Below, piece after piece: positions 1 through 5,607 of a DNA stretch of 64,000 bases (positions are counted from its first letter, which is position 1; every line of letters begins with the position of its first letter). A program made the position numbers and the translations under genes. Source of the DNA: Dermabacter indicis (GTDB lineage Bacteria > Actinomycetota > Actinomycetes > Actinomycetales > Dermabacteraceae); the NCBI GenBank assembly GCA_001403775.1, contig CYUG01000011.1, forward strand, positions 556,900-620,899, written 5' to 3'. The notes below the pieces were generated by a model. The model saw only the letters and a program-made list of their open reading frames with translations. It made no database searches and was not told where the DNA came from.

Positions 1-868
1 CCGAGGGGCGGTTCGGGGAATCGATCGGCTTCACGCGGTGTCGAGCGGGAGTGAAGTGCTCGAGCTCCTCGCTCGGCTCGCCCGTAAACTTCGCGGGGTT
101 CGCGCTTGCGTCCTTGGCGAGTTTGCCGAGATCGGAGAGGAAGGCCTCCGCGTCCATGACGAGACGGGCGGGTTCCTCACCCGCTGCACCCGCGCGGAAC
201 GCGAGCACGAGCTTCCCCTCGGGGCTGAAGGCCATCGCCGGGCCGTTGCCGTACGGGACGCTCTTTTCGATGAGCGCCTGATCGACCGCATTCGCATCGA
301 GCTTCGCTTCACCTGCCGCATGGTGCGCGGCCTTCGCGAAGTCACCCCACTTCGCCGCCTCAATGAGCGCCGTCGGGGCGAAGGACTGCTTCTTGCGGAC
401 GTCGTACCAGATCGTGCACGGCACATTCACATCCTCGCTGCCAAGGCTGCCGAGGACGGCCACGCCCACGACGTCCTGCGCGGCCGCGAGAATCGAGGCT
501 TCGATGCCGACCTTTTCGATATCTTCCCAGTGCGCCTCGCGAAGGAGACGGTTGCGCACAACCTCGGTGGCCTGGGTGAGATTGCGAGCCTGCGGGAAAC
601 GAGGGGTCGTGACGGTTTTACCCTCAGCTTCGGGATTGAGAGTCACGTCCGTCATCTCGAGGAACGAAGCGTCGACATTCGTCCACTCCGCCAACGGCTT
701 GGGGCTTTCGCTCGGCGACTGAGCGCCGCCACCCGCAGAAGAAGGCGTGCCGCCGCTCTTACCGTCCCCGGAGTTTGAGCAGGCCGCAAGACCCGCGATT
801 GCACCGGCCGAAAGCCCCGCGAGTGCGGTGCGGCGGCGAATGGGACGAGTACGAAAAACCGACGACAC
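1..868 (-). CDS. Secreted lipoprotein, 5' part only (C-terminus outside window)
   Basis: The reading frame starts at a GTG (868-866) behind an AAGGAAAG ribosome site and runs off the left edge without a stop. The first ~35 residues form a twin-arginine-like lipoprotein signal: a basic stretch PIRRRTAL, a hydrophobic AGLSAGAIAGL core and a lipobox ending LAAC followed by SNSGDG, then a Gly/Ser linker. The visible mature part (about 250 residues) is a soluble alpha/beta region resembling the RsiV/DUF3298-like domain that precedes polysaccharide deacetylase domains in some actinobacterial lipoproteins; that assignment is a guess, because the catalytic part would lie outside the window. Expected location is the outer face of the membrane. 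Confidence 0.7.
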   Translation of the reverse strand, partial: MSSVFRTRPIRRRTALAGLSAGAIAGLAACSNSGDGKSGGTPSSAGGGAQSPSESPKPLAEWTNVDASFLEMTDVTLNPEAEGKTVTTPRFPQARNLTQATEVVRNRLLREAHWEDIEKVGIEASILAAAQDVVGVAVLGSLGSEDVNVPCTIWYDVRKKQSFAPTALIEAAKWGDFAKAAHHAAGEAKLDANAVDQALIEKSVPYGNGPAMAFSPEGKLVLAFRAGAAGEEPARLVMDAEAFLSDLGKLAKDASANPAKFTGEPSEELEHFTPARHRVKPIDSPNRPS

Positions 869-1348
869 GATTCTTTCCTTCACAAACGAGAATGGACTTG
901 CGAGGTCGTTCGCGCTCCAGCGCGGTGAATAACGCCGCACGCGTGCCTCGCCGCCCACGAGTGTACTCCTGGGTCCCTCATGCGCCGTCAGAGCCGTGCG
1001 CGCACCGCCCCGGAATGTTCCCGGAGCAACTACTCGCTACTGCCCCCTACCTGACGCCCTCATCCGGTTTCAGGGTGGACCGAGGGTGAAGAAAAGAAAT
1101 CAGGCGAGCCGCCATGAGGGCTGCCATACCGTTTTCCTGCACCTGAAATACGCACGAAGGTTGGCTGACACAACGGCGAGGTGCCGAACAAGCAACCACA
1201 TCGGGGTGCACACGCACAATTCACGACAGGGGCGGGGTTGTCACCGGAACCCCAGACGGTACGAGCAAAATGTAACCCCGGCGATATAGCCGAGGCCAGT
1301 GATCGTTCCGGGGTCTTCGTAGATGACTATAACGTAGGGGGAGTCGCG
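869..1348. other. Gene-poor stretch with one copy of a short repeat
   Basis: No convincing gene lies here. The left part holds the promoter region of the leftward lipoprotein gene, and 1069-1148 is one copy of a short repeat found again at 2089-2167. The stretch just before the Abi gene carries its ribosome site (AGGGGGAG, 1336-1343). Nothing else was recognised. Confidence 0.5.
1069..1148 (+). repeat. Short repeat, copy A, left of the Abi gene
   Basis: About 80 bases that align almost without gaps to 2089-2167, with roughly ten mismatches over 72 aligned positions. The ends are imperfect inverted repeats: it begins TTTCAGGGTG and closes with CACCTGAAA. The shared middle includes GAGCCGCCATGAGG-like sequence. 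Together with copy B it brackets the Abi-type gene in direct orientation. It may be a miniature inverted-repeat element or the scar of an insertion. Confidence 0.65.
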
Positions 1349-2038
1349 ATGTCTACGGTTCCGGACGCCGTACCCAACTGCGGGGCGTGGAATGCGGATG
1401 AGATCTGTCGCTTCATTACATCGGAGCGCCTAGCATCGTATTTTACCGACACCGACGGGAGCGTCCGCCAAGCACTCCACCTATACGAGTGGAACATGAG
1501 AGCTTCAGCATCTGTCTTAGAGCTGACGTCGAAGGTGGAGGTGATCGTTCGAAATTTCCTTGACGCGTCACTCATCGCATGGGCCTCCACTCACCACCCA
1601 GGGACGTCGTGGTTCGATGCGGCGCCGCTAGACACGCATGCACAATCAGACATAGCAAAAGCGAGACGCCGGGCAACGCTGCATGGAAGACGGCCGGAGG
1701 TGCATGGAAGTGTGATCTCAGAACTCACATTGGGATTCTGGCGCTTTCTTGTCGAGTCGCGTTACCTCACCCGCCTCTGGGTACCGGCTTCTCATACTGC
1801 GTTTCCGCACGGGGCCAAAGATCTCCGCACACGACAAGAAGAAGTCGCGCTACGTATGAAGCAGCTCACCACCGTGAGAAACCGTGCCGCGCACCACGAG
1901 CCAATCCATCGCAGGGATCTGGGTCGGGACCTTCGGGCGGCTATAGATCTTGCATCGTGGGTTTCACCAGACGTCGGTGCTTGGGTGGCATCGAAGAATT
2001 CACTACAGAAACGCATCGAGGGCAAACCGCGACCTTGA
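1349..2038 (+). CDS. Abi-family (HEPN-like) abortive-infection candidate
   Basis: This 229-residue protein resembles the Abi/Abi_2-like family of phage abortive-infection factors. The strongest clue is the C-terminal motif RNRAAHHEP (residues 177-185), which fits the R-x4-H signature of HEPN ribonucleases (R177 and H182). Residues 55-75 (ELTSKVEVIVRNFLD) also match the conserved N-terminal helix of the family. The ATG at 1349 is preceded by AGGGGGAG; longer in-frame starts lack a ribosome site. It stands alone with no obvious antitoxin partner and is flanked by two copies of a short repeat, suggesting lateral acquisition. RNase activity and phage defence are inferred from the family, not demonstrated. 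Confidence 0.75.
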   Translation: MSTVPDAVPNCGAWNADEICRFITSERLASYFTDTDGSVRQALHLYEWNMRASASVLELTSKVEVIVRNFLDASLIAWASTHHPGTSWFDAAPLDTHAQSDIAKARRRATLHGRRPEVHGSVISELTLGFWRFLVESRYLTRLWVPASHTAFPHGAKDLRTRQEEVALRMKQLTTVRNRAAHHEPIHRRDLGRDLRAAIDLASWVSPDVGAWVASKNSLQKRIEGKPRP

Positions 2039-2088
2039 TCTCAAAGGCCACTCAAGACGAGAAAGTGGGAGGCCGACCTTTATCCCAG

Positions 2089-2167
2089 TTCAGGGTGGAC
2101 AGAAGGTGGACAAAAGAGACCAGGCAAGCCGCCATGAGGTCTGCCATGCCGTTTTTCCCCACCCTGA
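2089..2167 (+). repeat. Short repeat, copy B, right of the Abi gene
   Basis: Second copy of the element at 1069-1148. Here the terminal inverted repeats are cleaner: TCAGGGTGG at 2090-2098 and CCACCCTGA at 2159-2167 are perfect complements. It lies between the Abi stop codon and the tRNA-fMet terminator. Confidence 0.65.
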
Positions 2168-2180
2168 GTGGGTGGGCATG

Positions 2181-2222
2181 AAAAAGCGGCCCCTACGAGC
2201 TTGATACTCATGGGGGCCGCTA
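2181..2222 (-). terminator. Rho-independent terminator of tRNA-fMet
   Basis: On the minus strand an AGCGGCCCC / GGGGCCGCT stem is followed by TTTTT, directly downstream of the tRNA-fMet gene. Confidence 0.8.
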
Positions 2223-2225
2223 CTC

Positions 2226-2300
<75 letters not shown>

Positions 2301-2404
2301 TCGGTGATCTCTAATTTAGTAGGGTCACCCGGCGGAGTCTAGTTTTCAGCGGCTAAACGTTTCGTAGTTCACGTTCACGCCCCGTTCACGCTCCCGTTCC
2401 TTCG

Positions 2405-5400
2405 CTAATTGCCACCTCCGGCAAGCTGCGCGTTCGCGGCATCGGCCCGCTCGATCGCGTCCTTGAGGCGCTCTTGGGCCTCGCCGTACTTCGCCCAATC
2501 GCCCTCGGCGCGCGCCTTTTCAGCATCGTTCCACGCCGCATCGAGGTCTTTGAGCGCAGTATCGAGGTCGGCCTTCGGATTGCCCGAGCCGCCTTCGGGT
2601 GTCGTCGGTGCCGGTTGGTCGCTTGGCGCCTCGCTCGGCGCTTCGCTTGGGGCATCACTTGGCTTCGGAGCGACATCTCCACCGCCATCGCCGGCGGCGT
2701 TCGGGTCCGAGACCGCGTCCTCGACCGCCTTGGCTTCGCCGGTTGTGGGCACCTCGGCATCGCCCGCGCTCGCGCCCGAGTCGCCGCCGAAGACGGCATC
2801 AAGAGCTTCATCGAGCGTGTCGGCGTAGCCAACCTTGTCGCCGAAGCTCACGAGCACCTTGCGAAGCAGCGGGTATGACGTGCCGCCGCCCGAACTCGAG
2901 CTCATGACGTAAACCGGCTGCACGTACAGCAACCCGCCACCGACGGGAAGAGTCAGCAGGTTGCCGTTAATGACCTTCGAGTTGCCCTGGCGGAGCAGGT
3001 TCAGCTCGTTGGACACCTGCGGGTTCGAGTTGAAGGTGTTTTGCACCTGCCTAGGCGCGCTCACGGGATTCGAACTCGGGAGCACCAGGAGGGTGAGCTT
3101 GCCGAAGTCCTTCGCGGGATTGCCTGCTTTCGCCCCGGTTTCCGAGTTCACGGCGAGCATGCCCGTGAGGACGTCCTGACCGGACTCGGGAATGTAGCTC
3201 GAGGAAAGCGTGAATTGCGGCTCGCCTTCGCCCGGCATCTGCATCGTGAGGTAGTGCGGCGCTTGAAGCGGCGCGGAGCCACTCTCGTCTTCGCGCGCCT
3301 GCGTGGGGTCGGGGGTCGTTTGCCAGAAGTCCTGCCCCACGTAGAAGTCCTCGGCCTTATCGATGTGGTACTTGCCGAGAACGGACCGCTGCACCTTGAA
3401 GTAATCCGCGGGGTAACGCAAGTGGCTCATGAGGTCGCCCGAGATTTCACTCGAGGGTTTCACGGCGTGCGGGAAGGCCCCCTCCCACGCCTTGAGGATC
3501 GGGTCCTCCGTGTCCCACGCATACAGCGTCACGCTGCCATCAAAGGCGTCGACGGTTGCCTTGACCGAGTTGCGCATGTAGTTCACGCGACGCTCGCGCA
3601 GCCCGGCGGTGTCGGCACCGTTCACCTTCGAGTCGGTCACGACCTGATCGAAGTTGGTCGCTTGTGCGTACGGGTAGCGGTCGCTCGTGGTGTAGGCATC
3701 GATGACCCACTTGAGCTTGCCGTCCACGACCGCTGGGTACATCTCGGTGTCGAGGGACAGGAACGGCGCGACGGTTTTCACGCGCTGCTGCGGATCGCGA
3801 TCATAGAGAATCTGCGACTCTTCATTCACGTAGCTCGAAATGAGGATGTTGAACTCGCGGAACTTGATCGCGAACAGCATGCGGTTGAAGAAGTTGCCCA
3901 CGCTCGGGCCACCATTACCCGTGTAGGTGTTGGAGACCTGCCGGCCCTGGTCGTCTCCGTCCGTTCCGGACTGGTAGTCGAACTCCTGAGGATCGGATCC
4001 TTCGGGGGCACCCACAATCGAGTAGCTGGGCGAGTGGCGCCCGAAGTACACGCGCTCTTGGAACTTCCCGAGTTCGCCCGAGCCGGGGACGCCGGACTGG
4101 AAGAAGGCCGGTTCGCCATCGGTGCGGCGCTGATTACCGTAAGCCGCGGCAACGCCGAAGCCGTGCGTGTACACCACGTGCTGGTTGACCCACGACTGCG
4201 AGGCGAGCTCGAGTTTGTCGGGGCGAAGCTCACGCACGCCGATCACGGTGTCCTGCTTTTGCCCGTCGATTTCGTAGCGGTCCACGCTCAGCGTGTTTTC
4301 GAAGCCCCAGTAGCGGCGGTTCGCTTCGCGCTGGCCGAAGGTCGGCGAGACCACTGCCGGGTCAAGCAGGCGAATCTGCGCCGTGGTCGCGGCATCCTCG
4401 CGCAGCTGACCCGAGGTCGCCGTGGACTTTGCCCGGTACGACACTTCGTTGACGTCCTCGAGCCCGTACGCAGCGCGCGTGGCTGCCATGTTTTCCTCGA
4501 TAAACGGCTTTTCGAGGTTACGTTCGTTCGGCTCCACCTGGAAGGTTTGGATGAGGTACGGGTACACCATTCCGACGGCGACCGTGGACAGCACGATGAG
4601 GCCGGCCGCGGCGGCGGGCAGCTTCCAATTGCCTTTGAGGATCCACGCGAGCAAGAGCAGCGCGACGATGACCGCGGAAATCGCAAGGATGGTCTTGCCG
4701 GGAATGAGCGCGTGCACGTCGGTATACGCCGCGCCATCAAACTTTTCGTGCGAGGCCGTGAGCGTTCCATACCGCTCGAACCAGTGCTGCGCCGCGAGCA
4801 CAAACATGTAGGCCATCGCGATCACGCCCACGTGAGTGCGCGCCGCGCGGGTGAGCCTTAGGCCCTTCTTCTGGTCCCACTCGATGCCACCGTAAATAAA
4901 GTGGCCGAGCACCGTCGCGAACGCGCTCGTGAGGATCACAAAGTTCACGAGCCCGAGCGCGGTTTCAATCACGGGAAGCGTGAACACGTAGAATGCGATG
5001 TCCTTGTCAAACACCGGATCGGTTTTCCCGAACGGCGTTTGGTTGAGCATGAGCAGGATCTCTTGCCACTGGCGAGAAAGCGTGAGGCCACCGAAAACAC
5101 CGAGAACCACGGGCGCGGCGATCGTGATGATTTTCCTCAGCGGCTCAACGGCGTCGCGGAAGCCCGCGATCGCCACATCTTCGCGCGTCACGGGCACGAT
5201 CTGCGGCCGGTATTTGTAGCTCGCCCACAGGCACGCGAAGATTGGCGCCGCGACGGCCACGAGCCCGAGGAGGAACAAAAGCCCCTGCGTCACCCACTTC
5301 TTCACGAGGAAATCGTTGAAGCCAAGCTGGTCGAACCACATGTAGCTCGTCGCGACCTCGGCGAACCACGCAAAAGCCACGATGAGCGCGATGATCACGA

Positions 5401-5509
5401 TGATCGTGATCGTGAGCGGCGAGATCTTCTTCGCGCTCTTCTGGCTTGAGGAACCAGCGGGCTTGGGATTCGGCTGGGCAGCACCGGCAAAGGGGTTTGT
5501 GAAACTCAA
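2405..5509 (-). CDS. UPF0182 family membrane protein
   Basis: A 1,034-residue protein of the UPF0182 (COG1615) family, which is widespread in Actinobacteria and has no established function. The N-terminal third carries about seven hydrophobic segments, the first being LTITIIVIIALIVAFAW at about residues 35-51; a large, probably extracytoplasmic region with family blocks such as NERNLEKPFI and WVNQHVVYTHG follows. The C-terminal ~130 residues are low-complexity and acidic, with a short tandem APSEAPSEAPSD repeat and then a Glu/Ala-rich helix. The start is taken as TTG (5509) behind CCGAGG, giving MSFTNPFAG; a longer upstream form has no ribosome site. Divergent from the PPA1309 gene. Confidence 0.9.
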   Translation of the reverse strand: MSFTNPFAGAAQPNPKPAGSSSQKSAKKISPLTITIIVIIALIVAFAWFAEVATSYMWFDQLGFNDFLVKKWVTQGLLFLLGLVAVAAPIFACLWASYKYRPQIVPVTREDVAIAGFRDAVEPLRKIITIAAPVVLGVFGGLTLSRQWQEILLMLNQTPFGKTDPVFDKDIAFYVFTLPVIETALGLVNFVILTSAFATVLGHFIYGGIEWDQKKGLRLTRAARTHVGVIAMAYMFVLAAQHWFERYGTLTASHEKFDGAAYTDVHALIPGKTILAISAVIVALLLLAWILKGNWKLPAAAAGLIVLSTVAVGMVYPYLIQTFQVEPNERNLEKPFIEENMAATRAAYGLEDVNEVSYRAKSTATSGQLREDAATTAQIRLLDPAVVSPTFGQREANRRYWGFENTLSVDRYEIDGQKQDTVIGVRELRPDKLELASQSWVNQHVVYTHGFGVAAAYGNQRRTDGEPAFFQSGVPGSGELGKFQERVYFGRHSPSYSIVGAPEGSDPQEFDYQSGTDGDDQGRQVSNTYTGNGGPSVGNFFNRMLFAIKFREFNILISSYVNEESQILYDRDPQQRVKTVAPFLSLDTEMYPAVVDGKLKWVIDAYTTSDRYPYAQATNFDQVVTDSKVNGADTAGLRERRVNYMRNSVKATVDAFDGSVTLYAWDTEDPILKAWEGAFPHAVKPSSEISGDLMSHLRYPADYFKVQRSVLGKYHIDKAEDFYVGQDFWQTTPDPTQAREDESGSAPLQAPHYLTMQMPGEGEPQFTLSSSYIPESGQDVLTGMLAVNSETGAKAGNPAKDFGKLTLLVLPSSNPVSAPRQVQNTFNSNPQVSNELNLLRQGNSKVINGNLLTLPVGGGLLYVQPVYVMSSSSGGGTSYPLLRKVLVSFGDKVGYADTLDEALDAVFGGDSGASAGDAEVPTTGEAKAVEDAVSDPNAAGDGGGDVAPKPSDAPSEAPSEAPSDQPAPTTPEGGSGNPKADLDTALKDLDAAWNDAEKARAEGDWAKYGEAQERLKDAIERADAANAQLAGGGN

Positions 5510-5607
5510 CGGCGACCTCGGCTCACATCGTGGGGAACTATCGTGGGATGAGTACTCACCCCATCTTGAGGCAAGTGTCACTATTGTCCCAGTAAGGAGC
5601 AAACGCC

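What the first reader, a model, noticed from the sequence alone, without database searches (positions are those of the whole stretch)
1069..2167. Abi/HEPN gene bracketed by two short repeats with terminal inverted ends
Copies at 1069-1148 and 2089-2167 align almost gaplessly in direct orientation and each ends in inverted repeats (perfect 9-bp in copy B). This suggests a small mobile or recombinational cassette carrying a phage-defence gene, or two MITE insertions around it.
Basis: partly seen in the sequence, partly recalled or inferred. Interest (0 to 1): 0.55.

Follow-up and report, generated by a model that had tools for sequence, protein, structure and literature searches.

The report
Toxin gene with divergent guard RNA
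The two repeats are real but local, and what they enclose is a probable phage-defence toxin whose gene shares its start with the promoter of a small, oppositely transcribed RNA that probably holds the toxin in check, an arrangement we did not find described.

Summary
The repeats are real: 87 nt, 80% identical, direct, 1020 bp apart. They are the only two copies in the genome. Two congeners carry them at the same place; the other 44 family genomes searched have no significant match. Most relatives of the gene in other genera lack such repeats. The tract holding both repeats and the gene is much less diverged between species than its neighbours, so it was probably exchanged as a block; transposition is not shown.

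The working part lies between the repeats. The gene (1349-2038) encodes a HEPN protein of AbiF-like fold (best solved match PbAbiF-ncRNA, Z 11.5) and PD-T4-5 kind. On the opposite strand lies a predicted RNA of about 52 nt (1318-1267): covarying hairpin, fixed -10 box (66 of 75 loci), terminator-like tail. It precedes 67 of 80 homologues (20 of the 80 trained the model), reaches no Rfam cut-off, and its -35 box overlaps the toxin's start codon.

Best reading: a type III-like toxin and RNA-antitoxin module with a divergently transcribed RNA. Function is inferred; nothing was tested at the bench.

The parts
1057..1143 (+). Repeat copy A (inverted ends imperfect, TTCAGGGTGGAC...CACCTGAA, the latter reaching 1147)
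   Evidence: kept in G001 and G003
2077..2163 (+). Repeat copy B (perfect 9-bp inverted ends at 2090-2098 and 2159-2167)
1267..1318 (-). Predicted ~52-nt self-terminating hairpin RNA, divergent from the toxin; probable RNA antitoxin (5'-GAAGACCCCGG...CCGGGGUUACAUUUU)
   Evidence: model R2 69.5 bits, next best in the window 12.1; the window is one of the 21 sequences of R2; covariation; fold z -3.69; nothing at an Rfam cut-off
1326..1331 (-). -10 box TATAGT of the RNA promoter
   Evidence: only promoter-like site in 1030-2230; conserved position in 66 of 75 loci
1350..1355 (-). -35 box TAGACA of the RNA promoter, inside toxin codons 1-3
   Evidence: a start codon overlaps or abuts the -35 in 28 of 38 loci (the window is one of the 38 but was not scored by the script)
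1273..1298 (-). Terminator-like stem-loop of the RNA, followed by CATTTTGCTC
1349..2038 (+). AbiF-like / PD-T4-5-like HEPN protein, 229 aa, motif RNRAAH (residues 177-182); probable RNase toxin
2227..2300 (-). tRNA (anticodon CAU), right-hand neighbour; a terminator-like inverted repeat lies at 2185-2221
   Evidence: anticodon read from the alignment

Best explanation
The repeats bracket a two-part toxin and RNA-antitoxin module. The 229-aa HEPN protein is an RNase of AbiF-like fold, which in its relatives works as a dimer. Thirty nucleotides upstream, on the opposite strand, a sigma-70-type promoter drives a short RNA that folds into one hairpin (two stacked helices with a bulge, an internal loop and an apical stem) and ends in its own U-rich tail. 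The RNA most likely binds the toxin and silences it, as RCd22 and AbiFr do for AbiF. The -35 box lies on the toxin's start codon and the spacer covers a ribosome-binding-like AGGGGGAG (1336-1343), so strong RNA transcription should also hold toxin expression down. If a phage stops host transcription, the short RNA would be lost first, the toxin freed, RNA cut and growth stopped. The flanking repeats are an older duplication around the module that travelled with it and play no part in this. Shown by computation: fold similarity, RNA conservation and covariation, promoter position, co-occurrence. Inferred: toxicity, dimer, binding, neutralisation, phage trigger.
For: Protein: AlphaFold model pLDDT 94.7; top Foldseek hit 8vz6 PbAbiF dimer with ncRNA (E 7.9e-3, probability 1.00), Z 11.5 over 203 residues against 6.4 for the next. 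All 48 aligned sequences (window plus 47 homologues) match PADLOC PD-T4-5, 22 also AbiD; R177, R179, A181, E184 invariant and N178, H182, H183 at >=90%. RNA: 67 of 80 homologue loci carry it upstream of the toxin on the opposite strand; leaving out the 20 loci that trained the model, 47 of 60. 97.2% of cells paired, 10 of 15 pairs with two-sided changes, 98 such cells against 20 in shuffles (on an alignment fitted to the structure); RNAalifold predicts nearly the same helices on it. Strand: TANNNT at -17 to -19 before CCCCGG in 66 of 75 non-redundant loci against 5.4 (max 13) in shuffles, with TTGACA (<=1 mismatch) in 24 against 0.06; the only promoter-like and terminator-like sites in window 1030-2230 are these two. 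Start-codon overlap in 28 of 38 (no shuffle control run). Analogy: RCd22 neutralises AbiF by direct binding (PMC12373285: abstract, sections 7 and 11, first part of section 13, and passages); PD-T4-5 gives abortive defence, is called TA-like and a distant AbiF/D relative (PMC9519451, passages).
Against: No experiment. 12 of 80 homologue loci lack a match at E<=0.01 (L124 has too little upstream DNA to test, L113 matches at 0.0025 in the smaller search), and one more (L121) matches only on the toxin's own strand. Of 22 strong RNA loci from a genome-first search, 9 show no toxin gene nearby, 2 of these cut by contig ends. Folding energy does not pick the strand (minus less plus = +0.6 kcal/mol on average). 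One promoter-like and one terminator-like site in that stretch are not many more than shuffles give (0.4 and 0.7), so the weight rests on their conservation. The structure tool warns that Z under about 13 may mean only a common arrangement in helical proteins, and no Foldseek match reached E 0.001. The published AbiF RNAs lie on the same strand as their gene, and RF03085 and model R2 do not find each other's members. The toxin's own promoter was not found. The toxin frame is interrupted in congener G001.
Confidence: 0.72

Rival explanations
1. A small mobile cassette or a pair of MITEs: the two repeats are recombination sites or transposon ends that move the Abi gene.
For: Direct repeats with inverted ends; the block including both repeats is far less diverged between species than its flanks. 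Some relatives also sit between direct repeats of unrelated sequence: three Frankia-group loci (L086, L087, L104), a Propionibacteriaceae locus (L090) and an Acidimicrobiia locus (L093).
Against: Two copies only in the genome and none elsewhere in the family beyond two congeners; no target duplication seen; copies A and B are 76-80% alike within each genome but 87-91% alike copy by copy between the window's genome and its congeners, so the duplication is older than the exchange; flanking repeats are not enriched among homologues (6 of 79 against 5 of 127 controls).
Confidence: 0.15
2. The hairpin is only a transcription terminator or attenuator of the toxin mRNA on the plus strand, not a separate RNA.
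For: GC-rich stem; plus-strand folding energy is about as good; RCd22 acts partly by premature termination.
Against: Internal loop and bulge conservation that a terminator does not need; a fixed divergent promoter, and no fixed TANNNT upstream of the hairpin on the plus strand (at most 2 of 73 at any offset); U-rich tail on the minus strand.
Confidence: 0.1
3. The RNA is an antisense or cis regulator that acts on the toxin mRNA or promoter and does not bind the protein.
For: It is divergent with a promoter overlapping the toxin start, so transcription interference is likely.
Against: It does not overlap the coding region; its apical stem varies in sequence with pairing kept, as expected for a bound fold; the nearest solved relative binds its ncRNA.
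Confidence: 0.15

Closest known systems
AbiF with its ncRNA (RCd22-AbiFCd; PbAbiF-AbiFr, PDB 8vz6), a type III-like toxin-antitoxin
   Same: AbiF-like fold with an R-N-x3-H HEPN motif; small structured hairpin RNA directly upstream, with promoter and terminator of its own.
   Different: RNA on the opposite strand, -35 box inside the toxin's start; a shorter protein (229 aa; five canonical loci with RN.CAH checked here have ORFs of 331-381 aa read from the preceding stop); RNA not found by RF03085.
PD-T4-5 (E. coli plasmid anti-phage system)
   Same: All 48 aligned sequences match the PADLOC PD-T4-5 model; Abi-type defence described as TA-like.
   Different: Described as a gene; an RNA partner is not mentioned in the passages read. 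An E. coli plasmid relative (L171) also has a divergent TTGACA/TATACT site, though with a 15-nt spacer.
Rfam RF03085 abiF RNA
   Same: Hairpin of two or three helices beside an AbiF gene; a subset of the new RNAs shares a CCUCU...AUG core (8 of 75).
   Different: Same strand as its gene, bulge on the other side, no mutual model match.

Membership tests
AbiF / Abi_2 HEPN toxin | AbiF fold | tested here: met
   8vz6 top by Foldseek (E 7.9e-3) and VIA-align, Z 11.5 over 203 of 229 residues, next 6.4; caveat: the tool advises care under Z 13 for helical proteins
AbiF / Abi_2 HEPN toxin | HEPN motif R-phi-x3-H | tested here: met
   RNRAAH in window; R177 invariant, N178 and H182 >=90% over 48 sequences
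AbiF / Abi_2 HEPN toxin | Pfam Abi_2 above its gathering score | tested here: not met
   17.8 bits against 25.6 for the window protein; 34 of 48 aligned sequences hit at E<=0.01
PD-T4-5 defence system | PADLOC PD-T4-5 protein model | tested here: met
   E 9.2e-11 for the window; 48 of 48 aligned sequences at E<=0.001
Type III toxin-antitoxin | RNA gene beside the toxin gene | tested here: met
   67 of 80 homologue loci, 47 of 60 without the training loci; covariation
Type III toxin-antitoxin | RNA binds and neutralises the toxin | not testable with these tools
   inferred from RCd22 and PbAbiF only
Rfam RF03085 abiF RNA | match to the covariance model | tested here: not met
   no match up to E 10 in window 1150-1400, in 14 homologue loci, in L128 or L122 stretches
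Rfam RF03085 abiF RNA | RNA on the same strand, upstream of abiF | tested here: not met
   divergent -10 box in 66 of 75 loci
MITE or composite transposon | several dispersed copies in the genome | tested here: not met
   two matches, both here
MITE or composite transposon | target-site duplication | tested here: inconclusive
   none seen by eye; repeat ends are not sharply defined
Integron gene cassette (attC) | RYYYAAC / GTTRRRY attC core sites (motif recalled) | tested here: not met
   not seen at the ends of copies A or B, read by eye; no program run

The most novel reading that the evidence does not exclude
PD-T4-5-type defence genes are not single-gene systems. They form a widespread class of toxin and RNA-antitoxin modules in which a self-terminating ~52-nt hairpin RNA is transcribed divergently from a promoter whose -35 box is built into the toxin's first codons, so that one DNA stretch encodes toxin translation start and antitoxin transcription start. 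This would be a separate branch of the AbiF/Cas13 ancestral RNA-HEPN lineage.
Probability: 0.55. Interest if true: 0.75.

Novelty: new variant of a known kind. Interest (0 to 1): 0.6.

Why it matters
AbiF with its RNA is the proposed ancestor of Cas13 (as told in PMC12373285 and PMC12737573). A large related group with its own RNA, in another orientation and with the antitoxin promoter overlapping the toxin start, gives a second starting point for asking how a guardian RNA became a guide RNA. It also suggests that PD-T4-5 has an overlooked RNA partner, which is directly testable in laboratory E. coli.

Tried and rejected
MITE/transposon: searched the genome, family, plasmids and IMG/VR for copies, and scanned the terminal 12-mer; rejected as above. 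tRNA-attachment site: the boundary near 1038 only resembles the tRNA 3' end in the wrong orientation (read); rejected. The repeats as RNA hairpins: copy B folds at z -2.56, copy A at -1.26, and the predicted folds differ; not supported. The repeats as a general mark of the family: not enriched. Empty site: congener G002 lacks the module but shares only the tRNA and rightward sequence in the stretch compared, so no clean junction could be read.

The RNA was first taken as plus-strand (model R1) because the canonical abiF RNA is on the gene's strand. The wobble pattern, apical loops (both judged by eye) and then the promoter test changed that. R1-based numbers remain valid for pairing, but the correct-strand model is R2. 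A PDB profile search gave only weak hits to DARPins and a DARPin-Armadillo fusion, taken as chance. Rfam matches other than the tRNA in window 1-5000 were far below their gathering scores and taken as chance, among them YrlB over the RNA itself (17.7 of 97 bits) and mir-1231 and sodF at or beside repeat B.

Rows dropped: 87 model hits gave 86 after one was dropped by the duplicate/length filter and 75 after removing near-identical downstream sequences; they include orphan and second copies. One search's plus-strand check used 73 of the 75. In one search, 47 homologues plus the window protein were aligned: from the 80 loci others were left out to limit size or because the matched frame held a stop (L050, L053, L068, L085, L088). 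In one search only the 38 loci with a TANNNT and a -35 of at most 2 mismatches were counted; the window is one of them and was scored as a miss by the script (its overlap is read). In one search, 26 places had E<=1e-5 and 22 of them came with loci; only those 22 were examined, the window's own genome among them. A dimer or RNA-protein complex was not modelled.

Not in print: paper searches for AbiF/toxin-antitoxin/Cas13, Abi_2/noncoding RNA, abiF motif, PD-T4-5, AbiF/HEPN/Actinobacteria, Abi_2/antitoxin/ncRNA and Abi family protein/small RNA listed no paper whose title or abstract start tells of a divergent RNA for these genes; two searches showed only the top 20 and 10 of very long lists. The 224-motif RNA paper is not held, and the Cell paper on PbAbiF was seen only through papers that cite it, so this is a limited statement.

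Full report
OBSERVATION. A control of 207 block pairs across the window finds no other pair like it. Copy B has perfect 9-bp inverted ends, copy A imperfect ones. In the whole genome there are two matches and no more. Of 47 family genomes, three hold them: the window's genome and congeners G001 and G003, two copies each at the same place; every remaining hit has E 0.166 or more. The fourth congener, G002, has no repeat and no match to the gene.

THE REPEATS. Between the window's genome and its two congeners the block holding repeat A, the leader and the gene is 90-100% identical, repeat B 87-90%, while the sequence just left of the block (870-1056) is 70% and the lipoprotein gene 77-78% identical. 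At fourfold sites abi differs by 0.10-0.11, the UPF0182 gene by 0.35-0.42 and the lipoprotein gene by 0.49-0.54. The low-divergence tract starts about 30 nt left of repeat A. The simplest reading is that the block was exchanged between these species, probably by ordinary recombination, since it lies at the same site in all three. Copies A and B differ more from each other within a genome (76-80% alike) than each does between species, so the duplication is older than the exchange. Other homologues show that modules of this family can sit between unrelated direct repeats (L086, L087, L104, L090, L093), but a control shows no clear excess (6 of 79 against 5 of 127). The repeats are best read as a lineage-specific scar, not a defining part.

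THE PROTEIN. The 229-aa product has the HEPN motif RNRAAH. Pfam Abi_2 and HEPN_Swt1 are both below cut-off; NCBIfam gives nothing up to E 1; PADLOC gives PD-T4-5 at 9.2e-11 and AbiD at 7.6e-4. Of 48 aligned sequences (window included), 48 match PD-T4-5 and 34 match Abi_2 at E<=0.01. The predicted structure is confident (pLDDT 94.7). Its best solved match is the PbAbiF dimer bound to ncRNA (Foldseek E 7.9e-3), Z 11.5 with 3.4 A over 203 residues; the next row is Z 6.4. The tool warns that Z below about 13 can be a common arrangement in helical proteins; here the match stands well above the rest, spans nearly the whole chain and agrees with the sequence-level PD-T4-5 and AbiD hits.

THE RNA. Comparing the window with a 47%-identical homologue showed a stretch upstream of the gene better conserved than the protein. 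A pattern found it before many of 80 homologues (62 raw matches, some of them chance); two covariance models then measured it. Model R2, built in the orientation settled below from the window and 20 of the 80 loci, finds it in 68 of 80 loci at E<=0.01, 67 of them on the strand opposite the toxin and upstream of it (within about 200 nt except L102, about 290 nt); without the 20 training loci this is 47 of 60. In the 64-kb window it has one clear hit, 1318-1267 minus, 69.5 bits, against 12.1 for the next. Pairing is supported by two-sided changes in 10 of 15 pairs (98 cells against 20 in shuffles; slid controls 0-8 cells), on an alignment fitted to the structure, and again in the MAFFT alignment used for R2 (27 cells against 8). 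The anatomy on the minus strand is GAAGA, P1 (ACCCCGG/CCGGGGU), a 2-nt bulge, P2 of 3-4 pairs, a 3-by-1 internal loop, P3 of variable length, then a conserved U-rich tail, roughly UU(A/U)CGNCUUU. Rfam has no match at a gathering score and none to RF03085.

WHICH STRAND. Read outward from the toxin, a TANNNT box sits 17-19 nt before the CCCCGG in 66 of 75 non-redundant loci (shuffled mean 5.4, maximum 13), with a TTGACA-like -35 at the right spacing in 24 (shuffled mean 0.06); before the hairpin on the plus strand no offset has more than 2 of 73. In the window the only promoter-like and terminator-like patterns between 1030 and 2230 are this promoter (-35 1355-1350, -10 1331-1326) and this hairpin, though shuffles give 0.4 and 0.7 by chance. 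The minus-strand fold has z -3.69. Against this, mean folding energy slightly favours plus. In 28 of 38 loci with both boxes recognisable, a start codon opening a frame of 150 codons or more overlaps or abuts the -35 box, 26 of them at the same offset; the window shows the same by inspection (ATG at 1349-1351, -35 at 1350-1355).

HOW WIDE. In a genome-first search of 297 genomes of the order with R1, 41 had a match at E<=0.01, and the weaker ones are probably chance. Of the 22 strong loci examined, 13 have a toxin gene or its remnant directly beside the RNA in the divergent arrangement, 2 end at a contig edge and 7 look like orphan RNAs. Outside Actinomycetota, R2 also matches upstream of homologues in Methylorubrum (L174, E 2.2e-5) and Paracoccus (L113, E 0.0025); L127, an alphaproteobacterial MAG, was found by R1. 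Of seven plasmid homologues from Proteobacteria, L171, L172, L176 and L177 have a minus-strand promoter-like site matched by 0.7% of shuffles or fewer; L173, L174 and L175 do not, and no plus-strand site was matched by fewer than 10%.

MECHANISM. The solved relative binds one ncRNA per monomer, which blocks its RNase (as told in PMC12737573, passages). In C. difficile the RCd22 RNA neutralises AbiF in cis and trans by direct binding and needs its stems. By analogy the divergent RNA should bind and silence this toxin, and transcription from a promoter lying on the toxin's start should also repress it. Loss of the short RNA during phage takeover would free the toxin. Binding, toxicity and trigger are inference.

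COMPARISON. It works like a type III-like AbiF module. It belongs with the AbiF-like fold and with the PD-T4-5 group by model match, but it is not RF03085: the model does not match, the strand is opposite and the bulge lies on the other side, although 8 of 75 RNAs share a CCUCU...AUG core with RF03085. Hence: a new variant of a known kind. The organism is probably Dermabacter (recalled from genome size and family make-up; no call names it).

Noticed in passing
L005 / G001:C1:1551226-1551912: In congener G001 the toxin frame carries one in-frame TAA while the sequence of the divergent RNA is unchanged there; L050, L053, L068, L085 and L088 also hold a stop in the matched frame.
   Followed up: no
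L084, L091, L076, L096, L086, L104: Loci with two matches to the RNA: inverted copy downstream of the toxin in L084, direct copy downstream in L091, a second copy elsewhere in the others.
   Followed up: partly
L147, L149, L154, L158, L159, L160, L162: RNA copies with no toxin gene found in the fetched locus (about 1.5 kb to each side): possible orphan antitoxins or decayed modules.
   Followed up: partly
L086, L087, L104: Frankia-group modules flanked by 91-241 bp direct repeats that look partly made of the 5' end of a small membrane-protein gene (reading, not tested); may record insertion beside that gene.
   Followed up: partly
L176, L177, L126: Two plasmid homologues and one MAG homologue share what looks by eye like another candidate divergent RNA (GGGACUNG...CCCCC), behind strong promoter-like sites in L176 and L177.
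   Followed up: no
L129-L140: Canonical RF03085 abiF RNAs occur in the same order (over the cut-off in 13 of 198 genomes); in 5 of the 12 loci read a same-strand ORF with RN.CAH follows, and TANNNT boxes stand in front by eye in most.
   Followed up: partly
window 1-41: These bases recur at G000:C11:556258-556298, and reading frames near there contain X and repeated ends: probably a scaffold gap or assembly overlap just left of the window.
   Followed up: no
window 1-5600 against L035, L036: G001 and G003 are nearly identical in abi (1 of 136 fourfold sites differ) but differ at 240 of 540 in the adjacent UPF0182 gene: a recombination mosaic.
   Followed up: no
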